DNA of 55,572 bases, taken from NCBI GenBank assembly GCA_020851115.1, contig JADZDJ010000302.1, positions 1 through 55,572 of the forward strand, in the 5' to 3' direction. The notes under the pieces are model-generated. The model saw only the letters and a program-made list of their open reading frames with translations, searched no databases and was not told where the DNA came from. A program made the position numbers and the translations under genes. Below are positions 26,150-32,320 of this stretch, piece by piece. Position 1 is the stretch's first letter. The number at the start of each line of letters is the position of its first letter. This DNA is from Pirellulales bacterium. GTDB taxonomy: Bacteria > Planctomycetota > Planctomycetia > Pirellulales > JADZDJ01.

Positions 26150-28648
26150 AGACAGGCCGCTGAAGGTGGCTTGGAAGTCTTCTTCGGTCAGCGCTGTATC
26201 GAACAAGCCGACATCCAATCCCTTGTGACGACTGATTCCCATGTAACGCAGGCTGGAATCCTCGTACCGGCGGAACTTCCACACCGCATCGTTCATGAGT
26301 GCGCTATTGAAGACGCCTAGGCTCACGAGCCGCTCGAAGTCCTCGGTCGTCAATCCGGTGACGCGTTTAAAGAGCTTGGGCTCAATCTTGGTGATCACAT
26401 CTTTTAACCGCTGTTCCCGATAGTCGGTCAAGTACATAAAGACCGGAATGCGGGCGGCAAACTTAATCAGTTTCTCTTGCACCTGCTTGCGAAGCGATTT
26501 GCGTTCCCTTTCCGCCTCGGTCAGTTTGCGTTGCTCTTTTTCGCTGAGCTCGCCGTCATCGGCAATTCGGCGTTTCGCGTCTTTGATCTGCTCCGAGCGG
26601 TTGATAATTGTCTCGAGGTCGGCATTAAGGTTTCGGAAACCCTCGATGGCCATCAGCGCTTCCATCGCCTGCGGGTCGTTCATTAGACGATTGAGCGTGC
26701 CATCGTCGACGTTCACCAGCAGCACGCTTTCCCAACGCTTGGCGAGTTGCGTGGCGGCGGTCCCGCTGGTCACGACGTCGAGGATCTCCGTGGCGTCCAA
26801 TTGACGCATCGAACTGCCGTCGTACGCCAGCACGGGCAGGAACCCGACCAGCTCGGTGATGCGTTGCTCCGGCGTCGTTTCATCGGTTGCCAGCCGCGAC
26901 CCGTAATCGGCAATCTGCCGCAAGGCCCGGTTCAACGCGAAGTCGAAGACGTAACACTCCGGCTTCACGATGACGTCGTGCAAATTCGCGTCTTTCACGG
27001 TCCAAGGGGATTGCACGCGAAACGCCGCCTGAAAGTACGACTCCGGGCTGGACAGCTTGCGCAGCATGAGCATCCCCGTCCACGGACGCACCGTCACGCC
27101 CGTGGTCAGCTTTCCGCACGAAAGCGTGATCGACTTGCTCTTGAGCGGATCATCCATCGCTTCGAGCACCGGAGGCAGCGAAGCCGCGCCAATGCCCGCC
27201 GCCGCGCCGGCGGAGACCACTACCTTGAAGTCGTGGTAGAAGACGTTGTGCTTCGCCTGCAGCAAATTCGCCATCGCATGGCACGAGGCCACGCTCGGCA
27301 AAAACCAGAAGGTGTGATTGAGGACACTCATCAACCGCGCGTCGTAGAACGGCAGCGGCGGGCGATCCCGGCCGAGCTTCAAATCGTCGATTGTCGTGCC
27401 TTTGTACGAACCGCGAATGAGGTTCAGCCACTTCTGCACTTCATCTTCGTGCTCGAATTTTGCTTCGTCCTCGTCGCCTTCAGCGCGGAAAAACTCGTTC
27501 AGATCGAACTCGTTGAACTCCCCTTGCTCGGCCACCTGCCGAATCTCGTCCGGCAATGTGTAGGTCATCAGCACCAGTCGGGGTAGCTCGGCGTAGGGGT
27601 TCTCGCCGGGGCCTTTCCAGTCCCGTTTTGCCCGCTGCTCGTCGCTGTACGTCCAGTTGTAGATCTGCTCTTCGATGAATTCGCCCGAGGCTAGCGCTCG
27701 AAACGGGGTGCCGGAAAGGTACAGGTAAGCCCCCGTCTCAATGGGCAGGATGGTTTCGTCAAACGCCTGCTCGTCCTTGGCTACCTCATCCGCAAGTTCG
27801 CCTTCGTCTGCTTCGTCGGCTCCGAACAGGCCCTTGGCGTTCTCTCGCCAGGCGCCGTAATGGTACTCGTCGAGGATGACGCAGTCCCACTCGGTGAGAT
27901 GGACCCATTCGTTCTTGGCTTTGATCGCGCCGGTGCGGTCGCGCTGCAAAAAATCCTGAAAGCTGCCGAAGCAGACGATCGGCTTTTTCGGGTCGGCCTG
28001 TTCGTAAGTTAGGTCGGTGTCCCGGCCGATGAACTGCCAGCCTTCAAAGTCCTTGTGCCGGTTTAGGTCGTCCGCCCAGGCGTGCTTCACCACCGGCTTG
28101 AAGGTCAGCACCAGCACCTTTTTCCAACCCATCTGCTTCGCCAGTTGATAGCTGGCGAACGTCTTCCCGAAACGCATCTTCGCGTTCCAGAGAAAGTGCG
28201 GGGCGCGATCGGGCGTTTTCTGCTGTGCCCGTTTGAAATAGGCGACGGTCTGCGCGACGGCTGCTTTCTGCTCGGGGCGCAGGTCGAAGGTCTGCGTGCG
28301 GTCTTCGACGTTCGCCTCGCGATTCATCACCGCGACGATCGCGGCTTTCACGTCCTTGATCGTACACTTGAACCATTCGTGCGTGGTGTTCTTGTGCCCG
28401 CGCGCTCGCAGGTGTCGGTGAATGTCGCGATCGGTAAAACTCGTCCCGTCCGGCCGCATCGCCGATTCGATCAACTCGATCCGATACGCCTTGAGCCCGC
28501 CCGGCCACTGCTCGGCGATCCGCTCAGCCGCCTCGCGCTCGGTGTAACCGACCTTGAGCAATCCGGCGTGGTCGGGGTGGGTGCTGGCATAGGCATAGAT
28601 CGTTGGGGCTGCGAGGGGACGTGGGGGGAAGAAGTCGCTCGTGCTCAC
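26132..28648 (-). CDS. GIY-YIG-type nuclease domain fused to SF2 helicase (restriction subunit)
   Basis: This 838-residue protein is the likely DNA-cleaving and translocating part of a restriction system. Residues 15-100 are a GIY-YIG relative of the T5orf172/Mug113 type: TIYAYAS, LLKVGYTERE, then HEWFKCTIKDVKAAI. A superfamily 2 helicase follows: Walker A KMRFGKTF (158-163), DEYH box at 260-263, SGTPF at 312-316 and a second RecA-like part with LSCGKLTTGVTVRPW and AAFRVQSPW. The C-terminal 250 residues are charged and helical. The frame is intact, unlike the methylase upstream. Truncated copies of its first 35-40 codons occur at 29224-29342 and 30035-30169, next to toxin-antitoxin genes. If the methylase is dead, this subunit is probably silent or without a partner. 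Confidence 0.8.
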   Translation of the reverse strand: MSTSDFFPPRPLAAPTIYAYASTHPDHAGLLKVGYTEREAAERIAEQWPGGLKAYRIELIESAMRPDGTSFTDRDIHRHLRARGHKNTTHEWFKCTIKDVKAAIVAVMNREANVEDRTQTFDLRPEQKAAVAQTVAYFKRAQQKTPDRAPHFLWNAKMRFGKTFASYQLAKQMGWKKVLVLTFKPVVKHAWADDLNRHKDFEGWQFIGRDTDLTYEQADPKKPIVCFGSFQDFLQRDRTGAIKAKNEWVHLTEWDCVILDEYHYGAWRENAKGLFGADEADEGELADEVAKDEQAFDETILPIETGAYLYLSGTPFRALASGEFIEEQIYNWTYSDEQRAKRDWKGPGENPYAELPRLVLMTYTLPDEIRQVAEQGEFNEFDLNEFFRAEGDEDEAKFEHEDEVQKWLNLIRGSYKGTTIDDLKLGRDRPPLPFYDARLMSVLNHTFWFLPSVASCHAMANLLQAKHNVFYHDFKVVVSAGAAAGIGAASLPPVLEAMDDPLKSKSITLSCGKLTTGVTVRPWTGMLMLRKLSSPESYFQAAFRVQSPWTVKDANLHDVIVKPECYVFDFALNRALRQIADYGSRLATDETTPEQRITELVGFLPVLAYDGSSMRQLDATEILDVVTSGTAATQLAKRWESVLLVNVDDGTLNRLMNDPQAMEALMAIEGFRNLNADLETIINRSEQIKDAKRRIADDGELSEKEQRKLTEAERERKSLRKQVQEKLIKFAARIPVFMYLTDYREQRLKDVITKIEPKLFKRVTGLTTEDFERLVSLGVFNSALMNDAVWKFRRYEDSSLRYMGISRHKGLDVGLFDTALTEEDFQATFSGLSESPPR

Positions 28649-28663
28649 TTTTTAATTCCTTGG

Positions 28664-28693
28664 TTGACAAGATCGCGGCCGCGATCCGATACT
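28664..28693 (+). promoter_or_regulatory. Candidate hicB promoter with palindromic operator
   Basis: TTGACA at 28664-28669 and GATACT at 28688-28693 (18-base spacing, 4 of 6 in the -10) point toward hicB. Between them lies a perfect 16-bp palindrome GATCGCGGCCGCGATC at 28671-28686. Toxin-antitoxin operons usually repress themselves through such operators, so binding by HicB is a reasonable guess. It also lies just upstream of the divergent helicase gene. Confidence 0.4.
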
Positions 28694-28813
28694 TATTAGA
28701 AGCGGCTGCTCGGATCGAAGCCTTGCCCCCGCGTGTGAGATGGATGTCGATTCGGCGAGTTTTTCGACGGTGTGAAGTTCCAATCGCGGCGCGAAAGCAT
28801 GGGTTAGTTCGGT

Positions 28814-29029
28814 ATGAACCACTATACCTCCATCATCCAAAAAGACGGCGACTGGTGGGTCGGCTGGGTCGAAGAAATTCCCGGCGTCAACTGCCAGGAA
28901 CGCTCTCGCGCCAAGCTCCTTGAATCGATCCAAGAGGCATTGAGCGAGATGCTGCAGCTCAACCGCGAGGCTGCCGCCAGCGCCAGCGCCGCCACCGACA
29001 CCAGCGAACGCGTGAAAGTCACGGCATGA
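28814..29029 (+). CDS. hicB: HicB-family antitoxin
   Basis: This 71-residue protein has the HicB partial RNase-H-like fold: YTSIIQKDGDWWVGWVEEIP then GVNCQERSRAKLLESIQEAL. It would bind and block HicA, an mRNA interferase. The usual DNA-binding tail is not evident; the C-terminus is Ala/Ser/Thr-rich, so any operator binding is uncertain. Its stop codon overlaps the start of hicA (ATGA). It runs opposite to the restriction genes around it. Since hicA is broken, it is an orphan antitoxin now. Confidence 0.8.
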   Translation: MNHYTSIIQKDGDWWVGWVEEIPGVNCQERSRAKLLESIQEALSEMLQLNREAAASASAATDTSERVKVTA

Positions 29030-29219
29030 AAAGGCGCGACCTCTAGCGCCACCTTTCCGACCACGGCTGTCGCCTGCTGCGCGAAAGGGCAGGCATTCCT
29101 ACTGGTGCAACAGCGACAACACCCGCCGGTCTGCCATTCCGCGGCACAACGAGATCAAGGAAACGACCGCTCGCGCCATCTGCAAAGACCTCGGTGTCCC
29201 AGTGCCGGGCAGAGCATGA
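29026..29219 (+). pseudogene. hicA: HicA toxin gene, inactivated by an amber codon and a frameshift
   Basis: From the ATG overlapping the hicB stop, the frame reads MKRRDL, TAG at 29044-29046, then RHLSDHGCRLLRE. A frameshift near 29080 moves to a second frame reading GRHSYWCNSDNTRRSAIPRH, then EIKETTARAICKDLGVPVPG and a stop at 29217-29219. Together these match a complete HicA (double-stranded-RNA-binding-like fold with catalytic His in the GRHSYW region). The catalytic region is present but unreachable without reading past the stop and correcting the frame. The neighbours mntA and hicB are intact, so this is specific decay of the toxin. Confidence 0.75.
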
Positions 29220-29223
29220 ACCG

Positions 29224-29342
29224 AGACGCCGCTCGGTGTCGCCGACCTTGAGCAAGCTGGGGTGGTCGGGGTGGGTGCTGGCGAAGGCGTAGATTGTTGG
29301 CTTGGCGGCGGGGCGCGGCGGGAAGAACTCCTGCATGCTCAT
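29224..29342 (-). pseudogene. Truncated second copy of the GIY-YIG/helicase 5' end
   Basis: Reading from the ATG at 29342 gives MSMQEFFPPRPAAKPTIYAF, ASTHPDHPSLLKVGDTERR. This is a diverged copy of the first 38 or so codons of the helicase gene at 28648, about 80 percent identical in DNA over roughly 100 bases by eye. Homology ends at the point where the hicA pseudogene begins on the other strand. An open frame continues to 29043 only as antisense of hicA. It starts 15 bases after the hepT stop. Confidence 0.75.
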
Positions 29343-29357
29343 CGTGTCATCGCCCCT

Positions 29358-29705
29358 TTACTCCGGATCGGGAAGCGTTTGGATGATCGCCTCGACCTTC
29401 GGGATCAACGTCGGAATCACCTTCGTCACCGCGTCGTAGACCTTGTCCAGTTCCAGCTTGTCGTAACCGTGGATCAGCCGATCGCGCAGCCCGGCCATTT
29501 TCTGCCACGGAATGTCCGTGAACTGGCTCCGGAGCGCGGGCGTCAGTCGCTTGGTCGCCTCGCCGATGATCTACAGCCGCCGGTTCACCGCGTCCATTTT
29601 TGCGACATCGGCGACGAACGCGTCGAATGTCGCCTCCCCCATGTGCGAGACTACGATGCGCATCGATTCGCCGACGTCGATCAGATAAGCCTTATCCTTG
29701 TTCAT
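29358..29705 (-). pseudogene. hepT: HepT-like HEPN toxin gene with an in-frame amber codon
   Basis: The frame from the ATG at 29705 codes for a 115-residue DUF86/HEPN protein interrupted only by TAG at codon 45 (29571-29573): DAVNRRL, stop, IIGEATKRLTPALRSQF. In relatives this position is Gln or Glu, so a single CAG or GAG change suffices. The RNase motif, RDRLIHGY (R-x4-6-H), lies downstream and is intact, and no frameshift is seen. HepT cleaves RNA or is AMPylated by MntA in this kind of module. The start overlaps the end of mntA by 14 bases. Read through, it would be full length. Confidence 0.75.
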
Positions 29706-30030
29706 AAACCCGCCTCGCGTGCTTGAGGATGTGCCCGCGTCGAACCGGGTTGGTACTCTGTTCGATCCCGCGCCAGCTCACCACGTCCACCTTGCGGCCC
29801 AGCAATTTCCCCAGTTCCTCCTCCATGTCCATGTACTTGTATCCCCAATCGCCGGCGTCGTTGTCGATGAACCGCACGAGAAAATCCACGTCGCTGCGCT
29901 CCGGGGCGAAGTCGTCGCGCAGCACCGAACCGAATACCGCCAGCTCGCTCACCCCGTACTTCTCACATACGCGGGCGATCGCCTCCAGCGGCAGGTCGAT
30001 GCGAAGTTGTTCCGGTCGCGTCAAGAGCAT
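29692..30030 (-). CDS. mntA: MntA-like minimal nucleotidyltransferase (antitoxin of HEPN/MNT pair)
   Basis: This 112-residue protein has the polymerase-beta-type signature GSVLRDDFAPERSDVDFLV, with Gly-Ser and Asp-x-Asp for ATP and metal binding, and a third acidic strand at KVDVVSW. MntA antitoxins AMPylate the HepT toxin to silence it. It is followed by and overlaps hepT. The module sits between the methylase and the helicase, in the same direction as both, and starts only five bases after the truncated helicase copy ending at 30035. Confidence 0.82.
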   Translation of the reverse strand: MLLTRPEQLRIDLPLEAIARVCEKYGVSELAVFGSVLRDDFAPERSDVDFLVRFIDNDAGDWGYKYMDMEEELGKLLGRKVDVVSWRGIEQSTNPVRRGHILKHARRVYEQG

Positions 30031-30034
30031 GGCT

Positions 30035-30169
30035 TCATCCTAACAGTTGGTGCGATTCATGGCATCCCGCCTCGACCTTCAACAACCCCGCATGATCCGG
30101 GTGCGTGCTGGCGAAGGCGTAAATCGTCGGCTTGGCGTCGGGGCGGTTGGGGAAGAATTGGTCGCGCAT
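30035..30169 (-). pseudogene. Truncated third copy of the GIY-YIG/helicase 5' end
   Basis: The ATG at 30169 directly follows the methylase stop codon (TAG then ATG). It reads MRDQFFPNRPDAKPTIYAFA, STHPDHAGLLKVEAG and stops at 30035-30037 after 44 residues. The part up to LLKV matches the starts of the other two copies; after that the sequence differs. Being fused to the methylase end, this copy probably marks the original position of the helicase gene start before the toxin-antitoxin genes arrived. Confidence 0.7.
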
Positions 30170-31670
30170 CTAGTCGACTCCATCCATTGGACGGACCATT
30201 GACTCGATATACGCCACCTCGTCACCCGTGATACCGTACTTCTTGTACAGAAGTTCGTCTGTCCAAACACTGTCCCACTTCTGCAACGGAACCCAGTTGT
30301 ATGTGGAACGTGTCGCATCTTGCGTGATCTTTCGGAGCGATACGAGGAATCTAAAAAGCCTTGTCTTGTAATAAGATTGGACGCTCTTAGCTTCGGTTCG
30401 TGAACGGATATAGAAGAAAAGACTGGGTACAGACTGACGGCGACGGTGCAATCAGCGGCTTGCCGAGTATTTGATGAGGCAAGCCGTCCCCGCCGTTGAA
30501 TGCCTTCGGGACAAGTACTTTCCATGTGTCGATTAGATGCTCGCTCTTTTCGACAGAACCGCGAGAGATGTAGCCGATGCCCCTTTGCATCTTTCGAATG
30601 TAGTGGATCGGCAAGTCACCTTCGCGTTCCGTTTTGTGGAATCCATCGAAGTTTGACGTCCAACCAAACTCCTTGTCTACGGAAAGGATGTCGCTGATCG
30701 AAGTTTCCTGTTCAAGTTGCACTTTTCGAAGGATGCTAAGTGCCCGGCTGTCGCGCACGAGTACATCGAACTCGCCCAAGCTTCGTTCTTGCGGCCCGAT
30801 CACGTCACTGCCCCTAACCATTGTCATTGCGCAGTCACCCTCGGCATCGCGCTCCCACAAGAAATAGCAGACGCCACCTTTTATCTCCCCGCCAGGAAAC
30901 ACTTCGGCCGCAGCGGGATAGTCCACCAACTTTCGAATTCGCCGATCCTTAAGCATCTGTTGACGGAATTCGGCCAGCCCCAGTCCGCCGGCCATCCAGC
31001 GCGAAGGGACGATCATAGTAAGGAGTCGAGGATTTAGCTTCTTTGCCTAGTCGACAAACTTATTGTAAATCGGAATATCTCGATTGCCTCCGTCCGAGCC
31101 CAACTGGTACGGCGGATTGCCTACGATGACATCAAATTTCACGTTAAACACCTTTCTCGGATCGATGCCGTGGATGAAGGGATAGGCGTATTCTTCGAGC
31201 GATTCGTCGCGGTCGTATTCCCCTTGGCTCGCCCCGCAGAACTCGCAGCGGCCGGCGCTCGTCCACGCGTGGCCGGTCTTGGGCAGGCGGATGTTGCCGT
31301 CGGGCTTGGTGAACGCGGTGGCGATGCTGAACTTGCCGTCGGCCTTCTTCGAGCAGTAGACCGACCGGCGGCTGATGAGGCTGGTCAATTCGGTGATCGC
31401 CAGTCCAAAAACCTGCCTGGTGAGGATGTGATCGATGCGCTTCTGGTCGTCGGGCATCTGGTCGGCCAGACCTTCGTTCAATCGGCGCGCGATCTCGCGC
31501 AGGAAGACGCCGCTTTTGCAGACCGGGTCAAGGAAGGTCGTCTCGGGGGAGCGGAATAGGTCGGCGGGGAGCAGGTCGAGCATGGCCGAGGCCAGCTTCG
31601 GCGGGGTGAAGACCTCGTCGGCCGACAGGTTGGCCAGGCAGGTGAGGATGTCGGGGTTATGGCCGGTCAT
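30170..31670 (-). pseudogene. Eco57I-type adenine DNA methylase, broken by one amber codon and one frameshift
   Basis: The gene starts at 31670, overlapping the previous gene by ATGA. Its first part (31670-31047) has [15 protein letters not shown], motif [14 protein letters not shown] and motif [15 protein letters not shown]. Translation stops at TAG (31047-31049, codon 208) after YNKFVD, but the same frame goes straight on with AKKLNPRLLTMIVPSRW, the expected continuation, to 30387. Near 30420 one extra base shifts the frame; the family-like end is then read in the frame ending at 30170 (YIRSRTEAKSVQSYYKTRLF, RFLVSLRKITQDATRS, WTDELLYKKYGITGDE). Without both lesions it would be a protein of about 500 residues that methylates adenine and probably reads the target site. 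Confidence 0.8.
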
Positions 31671-32320
31671 GCTGCCCCTTCGGCGTCGGCAACCTTCAAG
31701 TAGTGCGATGGCGGGAAATCGCGAACGGGCGTGGGAACGTAGACGTCTTTGCCCAGATCGCTGAAGAGAGGCAAGTTGGCAATGTGGGCATGCTCGAGCA
31801 GGTGCTCGTAAACAAAATCGCGGCGTTTGAGGAGCGCGCCGTTGAGCGGCGACCATTCGCTGAACTCAATTGGCCGCCCGTCGGCGGTTTGCAGCGAAAG
31901 GGCGTCTCCCTGCAGGATATTTCGAGACAGAATGTACGCGATCGCAGCGCCGGCTTCTTCTGGCAGTTCTACTTTGAACGTCTGTGCGTGCGTGGCGGCA
32001 ACAATCTGTAGCAACCGCTCGCGACATTCGGCGACATTGTCGGCCAACAAGTCAACGCCGTAGAGGCTGCAGACGGCGAGGGCGGCGTCGCGCTCCCAGT
32101 GCTGGCGGTTGCGAGCGTTTTGCTTAGTGACCGTGCGGAGCTTGCGGCGCAGCACTTCGGCGAGAAAATTGCCGTTGCCGCAGGCGGGTTCCAGAAATCG
32201 CGAATCGATCCGTTCGCATTCGTGCGCGACCAGATCGAGCATGTCGTTGACGAGGCCGGGAGGGGTGAAGACCTCGCCATGGTCGATGACGCGCTGGCGG
32301 TTGGTGACGGATCGAGCCAT
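31667..32320 (-). CDS. N-6 adenine DNA methylase-like protein, short
   Basis: This 217-residue protein begins [20 protein letters not shown] and has SAM-binding motif [17 protein letters not shown]. The rest contains [20 protein letters not shown], typical of the N6-methylase fold, but there is no catalytic NPPY motif in the frame. It ends with ATGA overlap into the second methylase gene, which has NPPY, so the two may have worked as one split enzyme. It is the first gene of the restriction operon. Confidence 0.75.

What the first reader, a model, noticed from the sequence alone, without database searches (positions are those of the whole stretch)
28649..30169. Toxin-antitoxin genes placed between methylase and helicase, each beside a truncated copy of the helicase gene start
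Three copies of the first 35-40 codons of the GIY-YIG/helicase gene lie in a row on the minus strand: truncated at 30169 (directly after the methylase stop), truncated at 29342, and full-length at 28648. Between copies one and two sits mntA-hepT, between two and three sits hicBA in the opposite direction. The shared text is FFP.RP.A.PTIYA.ASTHPDH..LLKV in all three. I infer that toxin-antitoxin cassettes entered the operon twice at the same place, each time leaving or creating a new copy of the 5' end, perhaps by homologous joining that keeps the downstream gene intact. Cargo genes inside restriction operons are known; a ladder of duplicated gene starts separating successive cassettes is, as far as I know, not described.
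Basis: partly seen in the sequence, partly recalled or inferred. Interest (0 to 1): 0.85.

Follow-up and report, generated by a model that had tools for sequence, protein, structure and literature searches.

The report
Restriction operon stacks cassettes behind gene-start scars
In a bacterial DNA-cutting defence operon, extra defence genes pile up between the methylase and the helicase gene, and leftover beginnings of other helicase genes between them suggest that they arrived by joining different versions of the same operon.

Summary
Two truncated helicase starts and one full-length start lie in a row (79-81% DNA identity to the middle copy), separated by a MntA-HepT pair and an inverted HicBA-like pair. 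The truncated copies do not look like in-situ duplicates. They differ mainly at third codon positions, and both rank other genomes' helicase starts above their own. They are best read as starts of other, once functional alleles.

Relatives show a general pattern. The operon is DrdVI-like: M1, M2 and a GIY-YIG/helicase. Of 138 loci with a readable M2-helicase junction, 42 carry more than 250 nt there, often toxin-antitoxin, DUF1016, RhuM, Bro-N or HEPN genes. Helicase-start remnants are clear in 6 of these 42 and likely in 3 more; 33 show none.

Best reading: divergent operon copies recombine at the M2/helicase boundary, also the edge of the swapped specificity region. Cargo rides along, and imperfect joins leave gene-start scars. 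Embedding of defence genes is known; yeast WHO elements build a similar ladder. Here M2 and both toxin genes are broken.

The parts
31667..32320 (-). M1: small N6-methyltransferase subunit, 217 aa, intact
   Evidence: ORF; MmeI_Mtase 1.1e-5 (below curated cut-off); 68% to M1 of L007
30170..31709 (-). M2: Eco57I-type methylase with target-recognition half; broken by an in-frame TAG (31047-31049) and a frameshift (about 30387-30451)
   Evidence: Eco57I 1.9e-29; start by homology
30071..30169 (-). Truncated helicase start, copy 1 (about 33 codons), directly after the M2 stop
29692..30030 (-). mntA-like nucleotidyltransferase antitoxin gene, 112 aa, intact
   Evidence: NTP_transf_2 3.2e-14
29358..29705 (-). 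hepT-like HEPN toxin gene with an in-frame TAG (29571-29573)
   Evidence: HepT-like 4.1e-22 when read through
29230..29342 (-). Truncated helicase start, copy 2 (about 38 codons), its end close to the end of hicA
29026..29219 (+). hicA-like toxin remnant (in-frame TAG and frameshift)
   Evidence: intact homologous frames in three relatives
28814..29029 (+). hicB-like antitoxin frame, 71 aa, intact
   Evidence: (weak UPF0150-like)
28536..28648 (-). Helicase start, copy 3, the first part of the full-length gene; closer in DNA to the start of L007 than to L036-L038
26132..28648 (-). Full-length T5orf172 (GIY-YIG)/superfamily 2 helicase, 838 aa, intact; restriction subunit of a DrdVI-like system
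   Evidence: (T5orf172 2.1e-9, ResIII 6.1e-5)

Best explanation
The operon (M1, M2, GIY-YIG/helicase) exchanges its specificity region with other copies of the same operon. The exchanged block runs from the middle of M2 to the helicase start. Cargo genes (toxin-antitoxin and other defence genes) sit at the right edge of this block, between M2 and helicase. When two diverged operon copies are joined, the left part comes from copy A and ends about 6 to 46 codons inside helicase A; the right part comes from copy B and starts at the M2 tail or the cargo of B and runs into an intact helicase B (or an intact start on the resident helicase, if the incoming DNA was a circle integrating by the shared start). 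The result keeps M2 and the helicase whole and leaves the start of helicase A as a scar in front of the new cargo. Repeating this stacks cassettes, each behind a scar. Shown: the scars, their recurrence with different cargo, codon patterns and nearest relatives that point to other functional alleles, a start-plus-M2-tail join in L071 (and a weaker one in L104), and the swap boundary. Inferred: the order of events, natural DNA exchange as the source, and the joining pathway (short homology or illegitimate joining on the left, homologous recombination in the helicase on the right).
For: Scars recur: clear in window (2), L036, L060 (2), L071 (2), L082 and L223; weaker in L091, L093 and L104; 9 of 42 cargo-bearing junctions. 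Motif [FYLI]FP.[RK]P in 42 gaps over 100 nt: 7 forward, 0 reverse, 0.32 expected from elsewhere (motif chosen after seeing scars; two of the 7 are the window's own). Third-position excess: window c1 against its own helicase 4/4/15, c2 5/3/11, L036 3/4/16, L082 1/3/8. Own helicase ranks 7, 3 and 3 of 96 among starts most like c1, c2 and the L036 scar, and ties for first in L082. L071: helicase start runs into an M2 tail between two DUF1016 genes; L104: 18 nt identical to its own helicase start followed by an M2-like tail. In 94 of 122 operon pairs with helicases at least 80% alike, homology starts within -30..+60 nt of the helicase start; in 67 of the 94 the upstream block ends more than 400 nt before the M2 end, in 10 it reaches or nearly reaches the M2 end, and in 17 no upstream block over 300 nt was found. 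Same M2, different cargo: L059/L064. Window helicase start: 71/84 to L007 against 53/84 to L036, p 0.003.
Against: 33 of 42 cargo-bearing junctions show no readable scar, so scarless joins or decay must be common. The six scar loci with a named source are all metagenome bins and the other three lie in draft genomes of unnamed source; none was seen in a finished genome. The 122 pairs share loci (63 distinct loci in the 94) and are not independent, and the boundary at the helicase start is partly trivial, since the recognition half of M2 ends there. L060's scar is closest to its own helicase (10 codons only). The L036 and L082 scars share 47- and 38-nt exact stretches with their own helicase, which could be in-situ duplication or later conversion. 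The M2-tail matches are weak by score: 21.6 bits in L071 and 19.6 in L104, where reverse controls reach 20.8. The tandem array at the M1-M2 junction of L091 is largely 95-100% identical and looks like in-situ duplication. L075 has a 39-nt exact repeat at the junction that is not a helicase start. No parent pair for any join was identified.
Confidence: 0.7

Rival explanations
1. In-situ duplication: the cassette or a replication slip copied the helicase start at the resident gene (target-site duplication or tandem duplication), and the copies drifted apart afterwards.
For: Copies flank the cassettes as direct repeats; the L091 M1-M2 array is largely 95-100% identical; L036 and L082 scars share 47- and 38-nt exact stretches with their own helicase, and L060's short scar is closest to its own.
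Against: Free drift would spread changes over codon positions; third positions dominate. Scars c1, c2 and L036 are closer to other genomes' starts than to their own helicase, and L082 ties. Scar lengths vary from 6 to about 46 codons, unlike a fixed target duplication.
Confidence: 0.1
2. Homing like yeast WHO elements: nucleases in the cargo cut the helicase start of cargo-free alleles and are copied in together with a fresh, resistant start.
For: Same architecture as FBA1 fragments between WHO genes (PMC7282813 passages); DUF1016/YhcG nuclease-fold cargo beside scars in L060, L071 and L104 and, by eye, DUF1016- and GxxExxY-like frames in L091; faster change of the first 28 codons in L036-L038.
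Against: No DNA endonuclease was recognised in the window, L036 or L082 cargo; DUF1016 also occurs without scars (L053, L059, L088).
Confidence: 0.1
3. Assembly chimeras of mixed strains in metagenome bins.
For: The six scar loci with a named source are all MAGs; the window genome is in 304 contigs with 3.5% contamination; L036 and L082 have 47- and 38-nt exact matches between scar and helicase.
Against: In the window the longest exact match to its own helicase is 9 nt for copy 1 and 21 nt for copy 2, little for an assembler to join on; the pattern recurs in unrelated assemblies, and the motif is found in the operon direction only.
Confidence: 0.05
4. The short frames are real small genes or leader peptides that help translation of the next gene.
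For: They keep start codons and open frames; in L060 and L071 they form the start of the cargo frame.
Against: Length, end point and neighbour differ each time; cargo-free operons have no room for such a piece between M2 and helicase; one carries a stop (L060 second piece).
Confidence: 0.05

Closest known systems
DrdVI restriction-modification system (Deinococcus wulumuqiensis plasmid pDrdVI; M1-2.DrdVI, GCAGCC, table passage in PMC6430315)
   Same: Same gene order: DNA methyltransferase, Eco57I methylase, DEAD/DEAH helicase; helicase 53% identical
   Different: pDrdVI has no cargo (gap 1 nt); in the window M2 is broken and two cassettes and two scars are present
Defence genes embedded in other defence systems ('guilt-by-embedding', Payne et al. 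2024, seen only as cited in passages of PMC12988326 and PMC12255303)
   Same: Cargo inside a restriction operon; relatives carry PDC-S02 (DUF1016), PDC-S05 (RhuM) and Ppl; a NTase+HEPN pair is listed as PDC-M05
   Different: The passages that I read do not mention duplicated gene starts beside the embedded genes
Yeast WHO elements at FBA1 (PMC7282813, passages)
   Same: Successive elements separated by fragments of one end of the target gene; the target-gene end is replaced by divergent alleles; older units decay
   Different: 3' ends of a metabolic gene, a dedicated homing endonuclease, eukaryote; here 5' ends of a restriction gene and mixed cargo without a common nuclease
Exchange of target-recognition domains in restriction systems (recalled)
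   Same: Back half of M2 swapped with flanks conserved
   Different: Here cargo and the start of the next gene belong to the exchanged edge

Membership tests
DrdVI-like restriction-modification system | Gene order M1, M2 (Eco57I), GIY-YIG/helicase | tested here: met
DrdVI-like restriction-modification system | All three genes intact | tested here: not met
   M2 carries an in-frame TAG and a frameshift; met in relatives such as L007
DrdVI-like restriction-modification system | N6-adenine methylation of an asymmetric site | not testable with these tools
   needs methylome data
Embedded defence gene | Gene or pair lies between genes of one defence operon | tested here: met
   in the window; 42 of 138 junctions carry over 250 nt
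Embedded defence gene | Cargo belongs to known or candidate defence families | tested here: met
   PDC-S02, PDC-S05 and Ppl in relatives; MntA-HepT in the window by Pfam, not run against PADLOC
Embedded defence gene | Cargo genes intact | tested here: not met
   hepT and hicA in the window are broken; the antitoxin frames are open
WHO-type homing element | Fragments of one end of the target gene interspersed with cargo | tested here: met
WHO-type homing element | Cargo encodes an endonuclease that cuts the target gene | tested here: not met
   no DNA endonuclease recognised in the window cargo; nuclease folds in some relatives, cutting not testable
WHO-type homing element | Target end replaced by divergent alleles, discordant with the gene body | tested here: inconclusive
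   first 28 codons diverge in L036-L038, and the window start is closer to L007; few genomes
Transposon with target-site duplication | Identical short duplication and terminal inverted repeats | tested here: not met
   copies differ by 19-27%; none of the 7 inverted-repeat pairs of 16 nt or more sits at the two borders of a cassette

The most novel reading that the evidence does not exclude
The helicase start is a recurrent docking sequence for a class of homology-borne cassettes in bacteria: units of [M2 tail - cargo - helicase start] that leave as circles or broken ends, enter any operon of the family through the shared start, and stack. Nuclease cargo such as DUF1016 may drive the process by cutting cargo-free starts, a bacterial counterpart of WHO elements.
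Probability: 0.12. Interest if true: 0.85.

Novelty: new variant of a known kind. Interest (0 to 1): 0.6.

Why it matters
Defence genes are often found inside other defence operons, but how they get in without breaking the host genes is, as far as I know, open. The scars here are a readable record of such joins: they suggest that cargo came with a foreign allele of the downstream gene, that several events stacked in one place, and that the site is the edge of the specificity-swap block. This makes the route testable by comparing strains and by transformation assays, and gives a cheap search rule (a stray gene start in front of cargo) for embedded genes in other operons.

Tried and rejected
Simple target-site duplication and plain tandem duplication were rejected for the window from codon-position counts and nearest-start ranks. 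A transposon was rejected because no inverted-repeat pair sits at the cassette borders and the repeats are too diverged. A reassigned TAG codon was considered because of the in-frame TAGs in M2, hepT and hicA; it was set aside because M2 and hicA also have frameshifts and long frames around the operon are open without it. L039 was first read by eye as holding a helicase fragment; the searches did not support it and it is not counted. L068 (23.5 bits, just above the reverse maximum of 23.1) is not counted either. L079 showed an M2 tail in the gap that is its own misread M2 end. L075's 39-nt exact repeat, which beat all 142 random windows, was not pursued. The plasmid search for the HicB-like frame gave nothing, and PDB gave no useful match for the helicase.

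Left out of the counts: the 17 most distant viral loci (L188-L204, 26-33% identity); the distant or partial hits of the order, phylum and class searches (L018-L035, L135, L208, L209, L214-L219; L018-L035 were looked at only); the fragments L003/L008 and L004/L009; L044, which lacks the helicase start; and 11 loci without a readable M2 (7, 3, 1). Near-identical loci were not collapsed in the counts (L105=L141; L154=L162=L163; L155 close to L156). L223 was fetched after the scar searches and searched on its own, which raised the clear cases from 5 to 6.
Full report
WHAT IS THERE. On the minus strand the window holds a restriction operon: M1 (31667-32320), M2 with an Eco57I domain (to 30170), then a start-only copy of the helicase gene (30169), a MntA-HepT pair, a second start-only copy (29342), an inverted HicBA-like pair and the full-length T5orf172/helicase gene (28648-26132). 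The three starts match over 85-112 nt at 79-81% identity to the middle copy. Copy 1 starts directly after the M2 stop, and its homology ends near codon 33; copy 2's homology ends near codon 38, close to the end of hicA. The HicBA name rests on three relatives in which the same small frame is followed at once by an intact HicA-like frame (three read, of 22 of 196 genomes with a match including the window's own) and on recall; Pfam gives only a weak UPF0150-like score. M2, hepT and hicA are broken here, while M1, the helicase and both antitoxin frames are open. The window copy is thus probably not an active restriction system.

WHICH SYSTEM. The helicase matches PADLOC's type IIG restriction model PDLC03626 over profile positions 152-799 of 1359, and M2 of L007 matches its end, 1010-1357. 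On plasmid pDrdVI the same three genes stand in the same order, helicase 53% identical; the published table lists M1-2.DrdVI with GCAGCC (PMC6430315, passage). I call the family DrdVI-like.

THE JUNCTION IS A CARGO SITE. In the simplest layout M2 and helicase overlap or nearly touch (for example L007, gap 12 nt). I measured the gap in 101 loci: one lacks the helicase start, 7 lack a readable M2, and 34 of the remaining 93 have more than 250 nt. The M1-M2 gap exceeds 250 nt in 8 of 79. Viral contigs add 7 of 38 (3 of 41 without M2; three of the 7 are the same sequence) and later loci 1 of 7 (1 of 8 without M2). In all, 42 of 138 (recounted). Cargo by Pfam or PADLOC, some matches below the curated cut-off: DUF1016/YhcG, Bro-N, RhuM, PIN, ParE with HTH, DUF433/DUF5615, zeta toxin, PemK, HEPN families, SLFN_AlbA_2, PDDEXK_3, DUF3800, Ppl and others; several gaps have no recognised gene.

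SCARS ELSEWHERE. Using 100 helicase N-termini against 35 gaps, with the reverse strand as control (maximum 23.1 bits), helicase starts stand out in the window (66.6, 60.1), L036 (85.5), L082 (72.8) and L060 (31.6, 29.3); L071 (23.9) and L068 (23.5) are marginal, and L068 is not counted. With longer queries the reverse maximum is 25.4 and the same four loci stand out; L071 then reaches 26.6 and L036 has a secondary match of 28.1 within its scar. The 7 viral gaps gave nothing above 20.0. L223, searched later, scores 25.8 forward against 18.5 reverse: a 12-codon start of its own, FFP-less subfamily lies at the M2 stop before a PIN and an antitoxin-like gene. L036 has M2, a 46-codon helicase start, a zeta-toxin gene and a small frame fused to the full helicase. 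L060 has the start fused to the front of a DUF1016 gene and a second piece before RhuM. L071 has M2, DUF1016, [helicase start running into an M2 tail], DUF1016, [helicase start running into a RhuM gene shorter at its front than those of L060 and L085], Bro-N (by eye), helicase. L104 has an 18-nt exact start followed by an M2-like tail between two DUF1016 genes; the tail is weak by score, 19.6 bits where reverse controls reach 20.8, but the tail motif occurs only twice in 1.49 million nt-strands elsewhere. L091 and L093 show junction DNA matches better than all 121 and 139 random windows. A motif count made afterwards gives 7 forward, 0 reverse, 0.32 expected; its 11 hits elsewhere look like chance. 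So scars are clear in 6 (window, L036, L060, L071, L082, L223) and likely in 3 (L091, L093, L104) of 42 cargo-bearing junctions; 33 show none.

ORIGIN OF THE COPIES. Differences between scars and the downstream start sit mostly at third codon positions: window c1 4/4/15 (p 0.0017 against one third), c2 5/3/11 (p 0.024), L036 3/4/16 (p 0.0004), L082 1/3/8 (p 0.019), L060 1/1/3 (p 0.21). dN/dS is about 0.11 for c1-c2, 0.08 for c1-c3 and 0.25 for c2-c3 over 28 codons. Among 96 helicase starts the own gene ranks 7th for c1, 3rd for c2, 3rd for L036, ties for first in L082 and is 1st for L060. The simplest reading is that the copies diverged while they were working genes, so they come from other alleles; for L060 this is not shown.

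THE SITE IS A SWAP BOUNDARY. L037 and L038, both cargo-free, are 78-93% alike along M1 and most of the front of M2, 43-63% over the back half of M2, 67% over the first 30 nt of the helicase from the FFP codon, 80% over the next 30, and 87-100% over the following 270 nt. In 94 of 122 locus pairs (helicase at least 80% alike; 63 distinct loci) homology on the helicase side begins within -30..+60 nt of its start; 20 pairs are continuous for over 1000 nt upstream. In 67 of the 94 the upstream block ends more than 400 nt before the M2 end, in 10 it reaches or nearly reaches the M2 end, in 17 none was found. Part of this is expected, since the recognition half of M2 ends there. But L099/L100 (helicase 96%) differ in cargo, and L073/L085 in its presence, right up to the helicase start, and L059/L064 keep the same M2 with different cargo. 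The window helicase start is 71/84 identical to L007 but 53/84 to L036 (p 0.003), although its body protein is closer to L036-L038 (84% against 79%).

MECHANISM. The simplest reading is joining of two diverged operon copies, A on the left ending inside helicase A, B on the right beginning at M2 tail or cargo and continuing to a whole helicase. The start-plus-M2-tail joins in L071 and, less surely, L104 are this product, or equally the joint of a circle that entered through the shared start. The M1-M2 gap of L091 shows the same architecture (an exact 47-nt copy of the M2 leader and start before M1-tail/GxxExxY-like units), but nearly identical, so recent duplication also happens. A mntA remnant lies at the same junction in L039 (70% over 33 residues); the best other mntA in 196 genomes of the order is 55%, which hints that the cassette type moves between copies of this site.

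KNOWN AND NEW. Embedded defence genes, DarTG2 between hsdS and hsdR ('potential recombination hotspot') and RhuM/HEPN genes in restriction loci are in print (PMC12988326, PMC12255303, PMC3710099; passages). WHO elements show the ladder logic in yeast (PMC7282813, passages). I saw no description of gene-start scars in restriction operons in the searches; Payne et al. 2024 itself was not read.

LIMITS. The scar loci are metagenome bins or drafts of unnamed source; the window genome has 304 contigs and 3.5% contamination. The order of events and the recombination pathway are inferred.

Noticed in passing
L091:1130-2278: Tandem array at the M1-M2 junction: M1-tail plus GxxExxY-like units (named by eye) with a 678-nt period at 95%, and an exact 47-nt copy of the M2 leader and first codons.
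   Followed up: partly
window 28814-31709: Both toxin genes (hepT, hicA) and M2 are broken, while both antitoxin frames, M1 and the helicase are open.
   Followed up: partly
L036:2539-5292: The small gene after the zeta toxin is fused in frame to the full helicase, giving a helicase with an extra N-terminal part.
   Followed up: no
L039:4686-5058: Remnants of mntA and of a KilA-N gene stacked after M2, before a HicA-like and an HTH-like frame (both named by eye) and the helicase.
   Followed up: partly
L142 (G702, single-contig genome), M2-helicase gap: The gap holds only what looks by eye like the 5' part of a RhuM gene, a decaying cargo in a single-contig assembly.
   Followed up: no
L040:4785-5765 and neighbours: M2 of G061 matches only in its last 246 residues; frames that look by eye like transposases lie upstream.
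   Followed up: no
L053, L059, L064, L072, L088 and L097, first cargo gene: The first cargo gene starts at the place of the helicase start, overlapping the M2 stop by 8 nt, as if it took over the translational coupling.
   Followed up: partly
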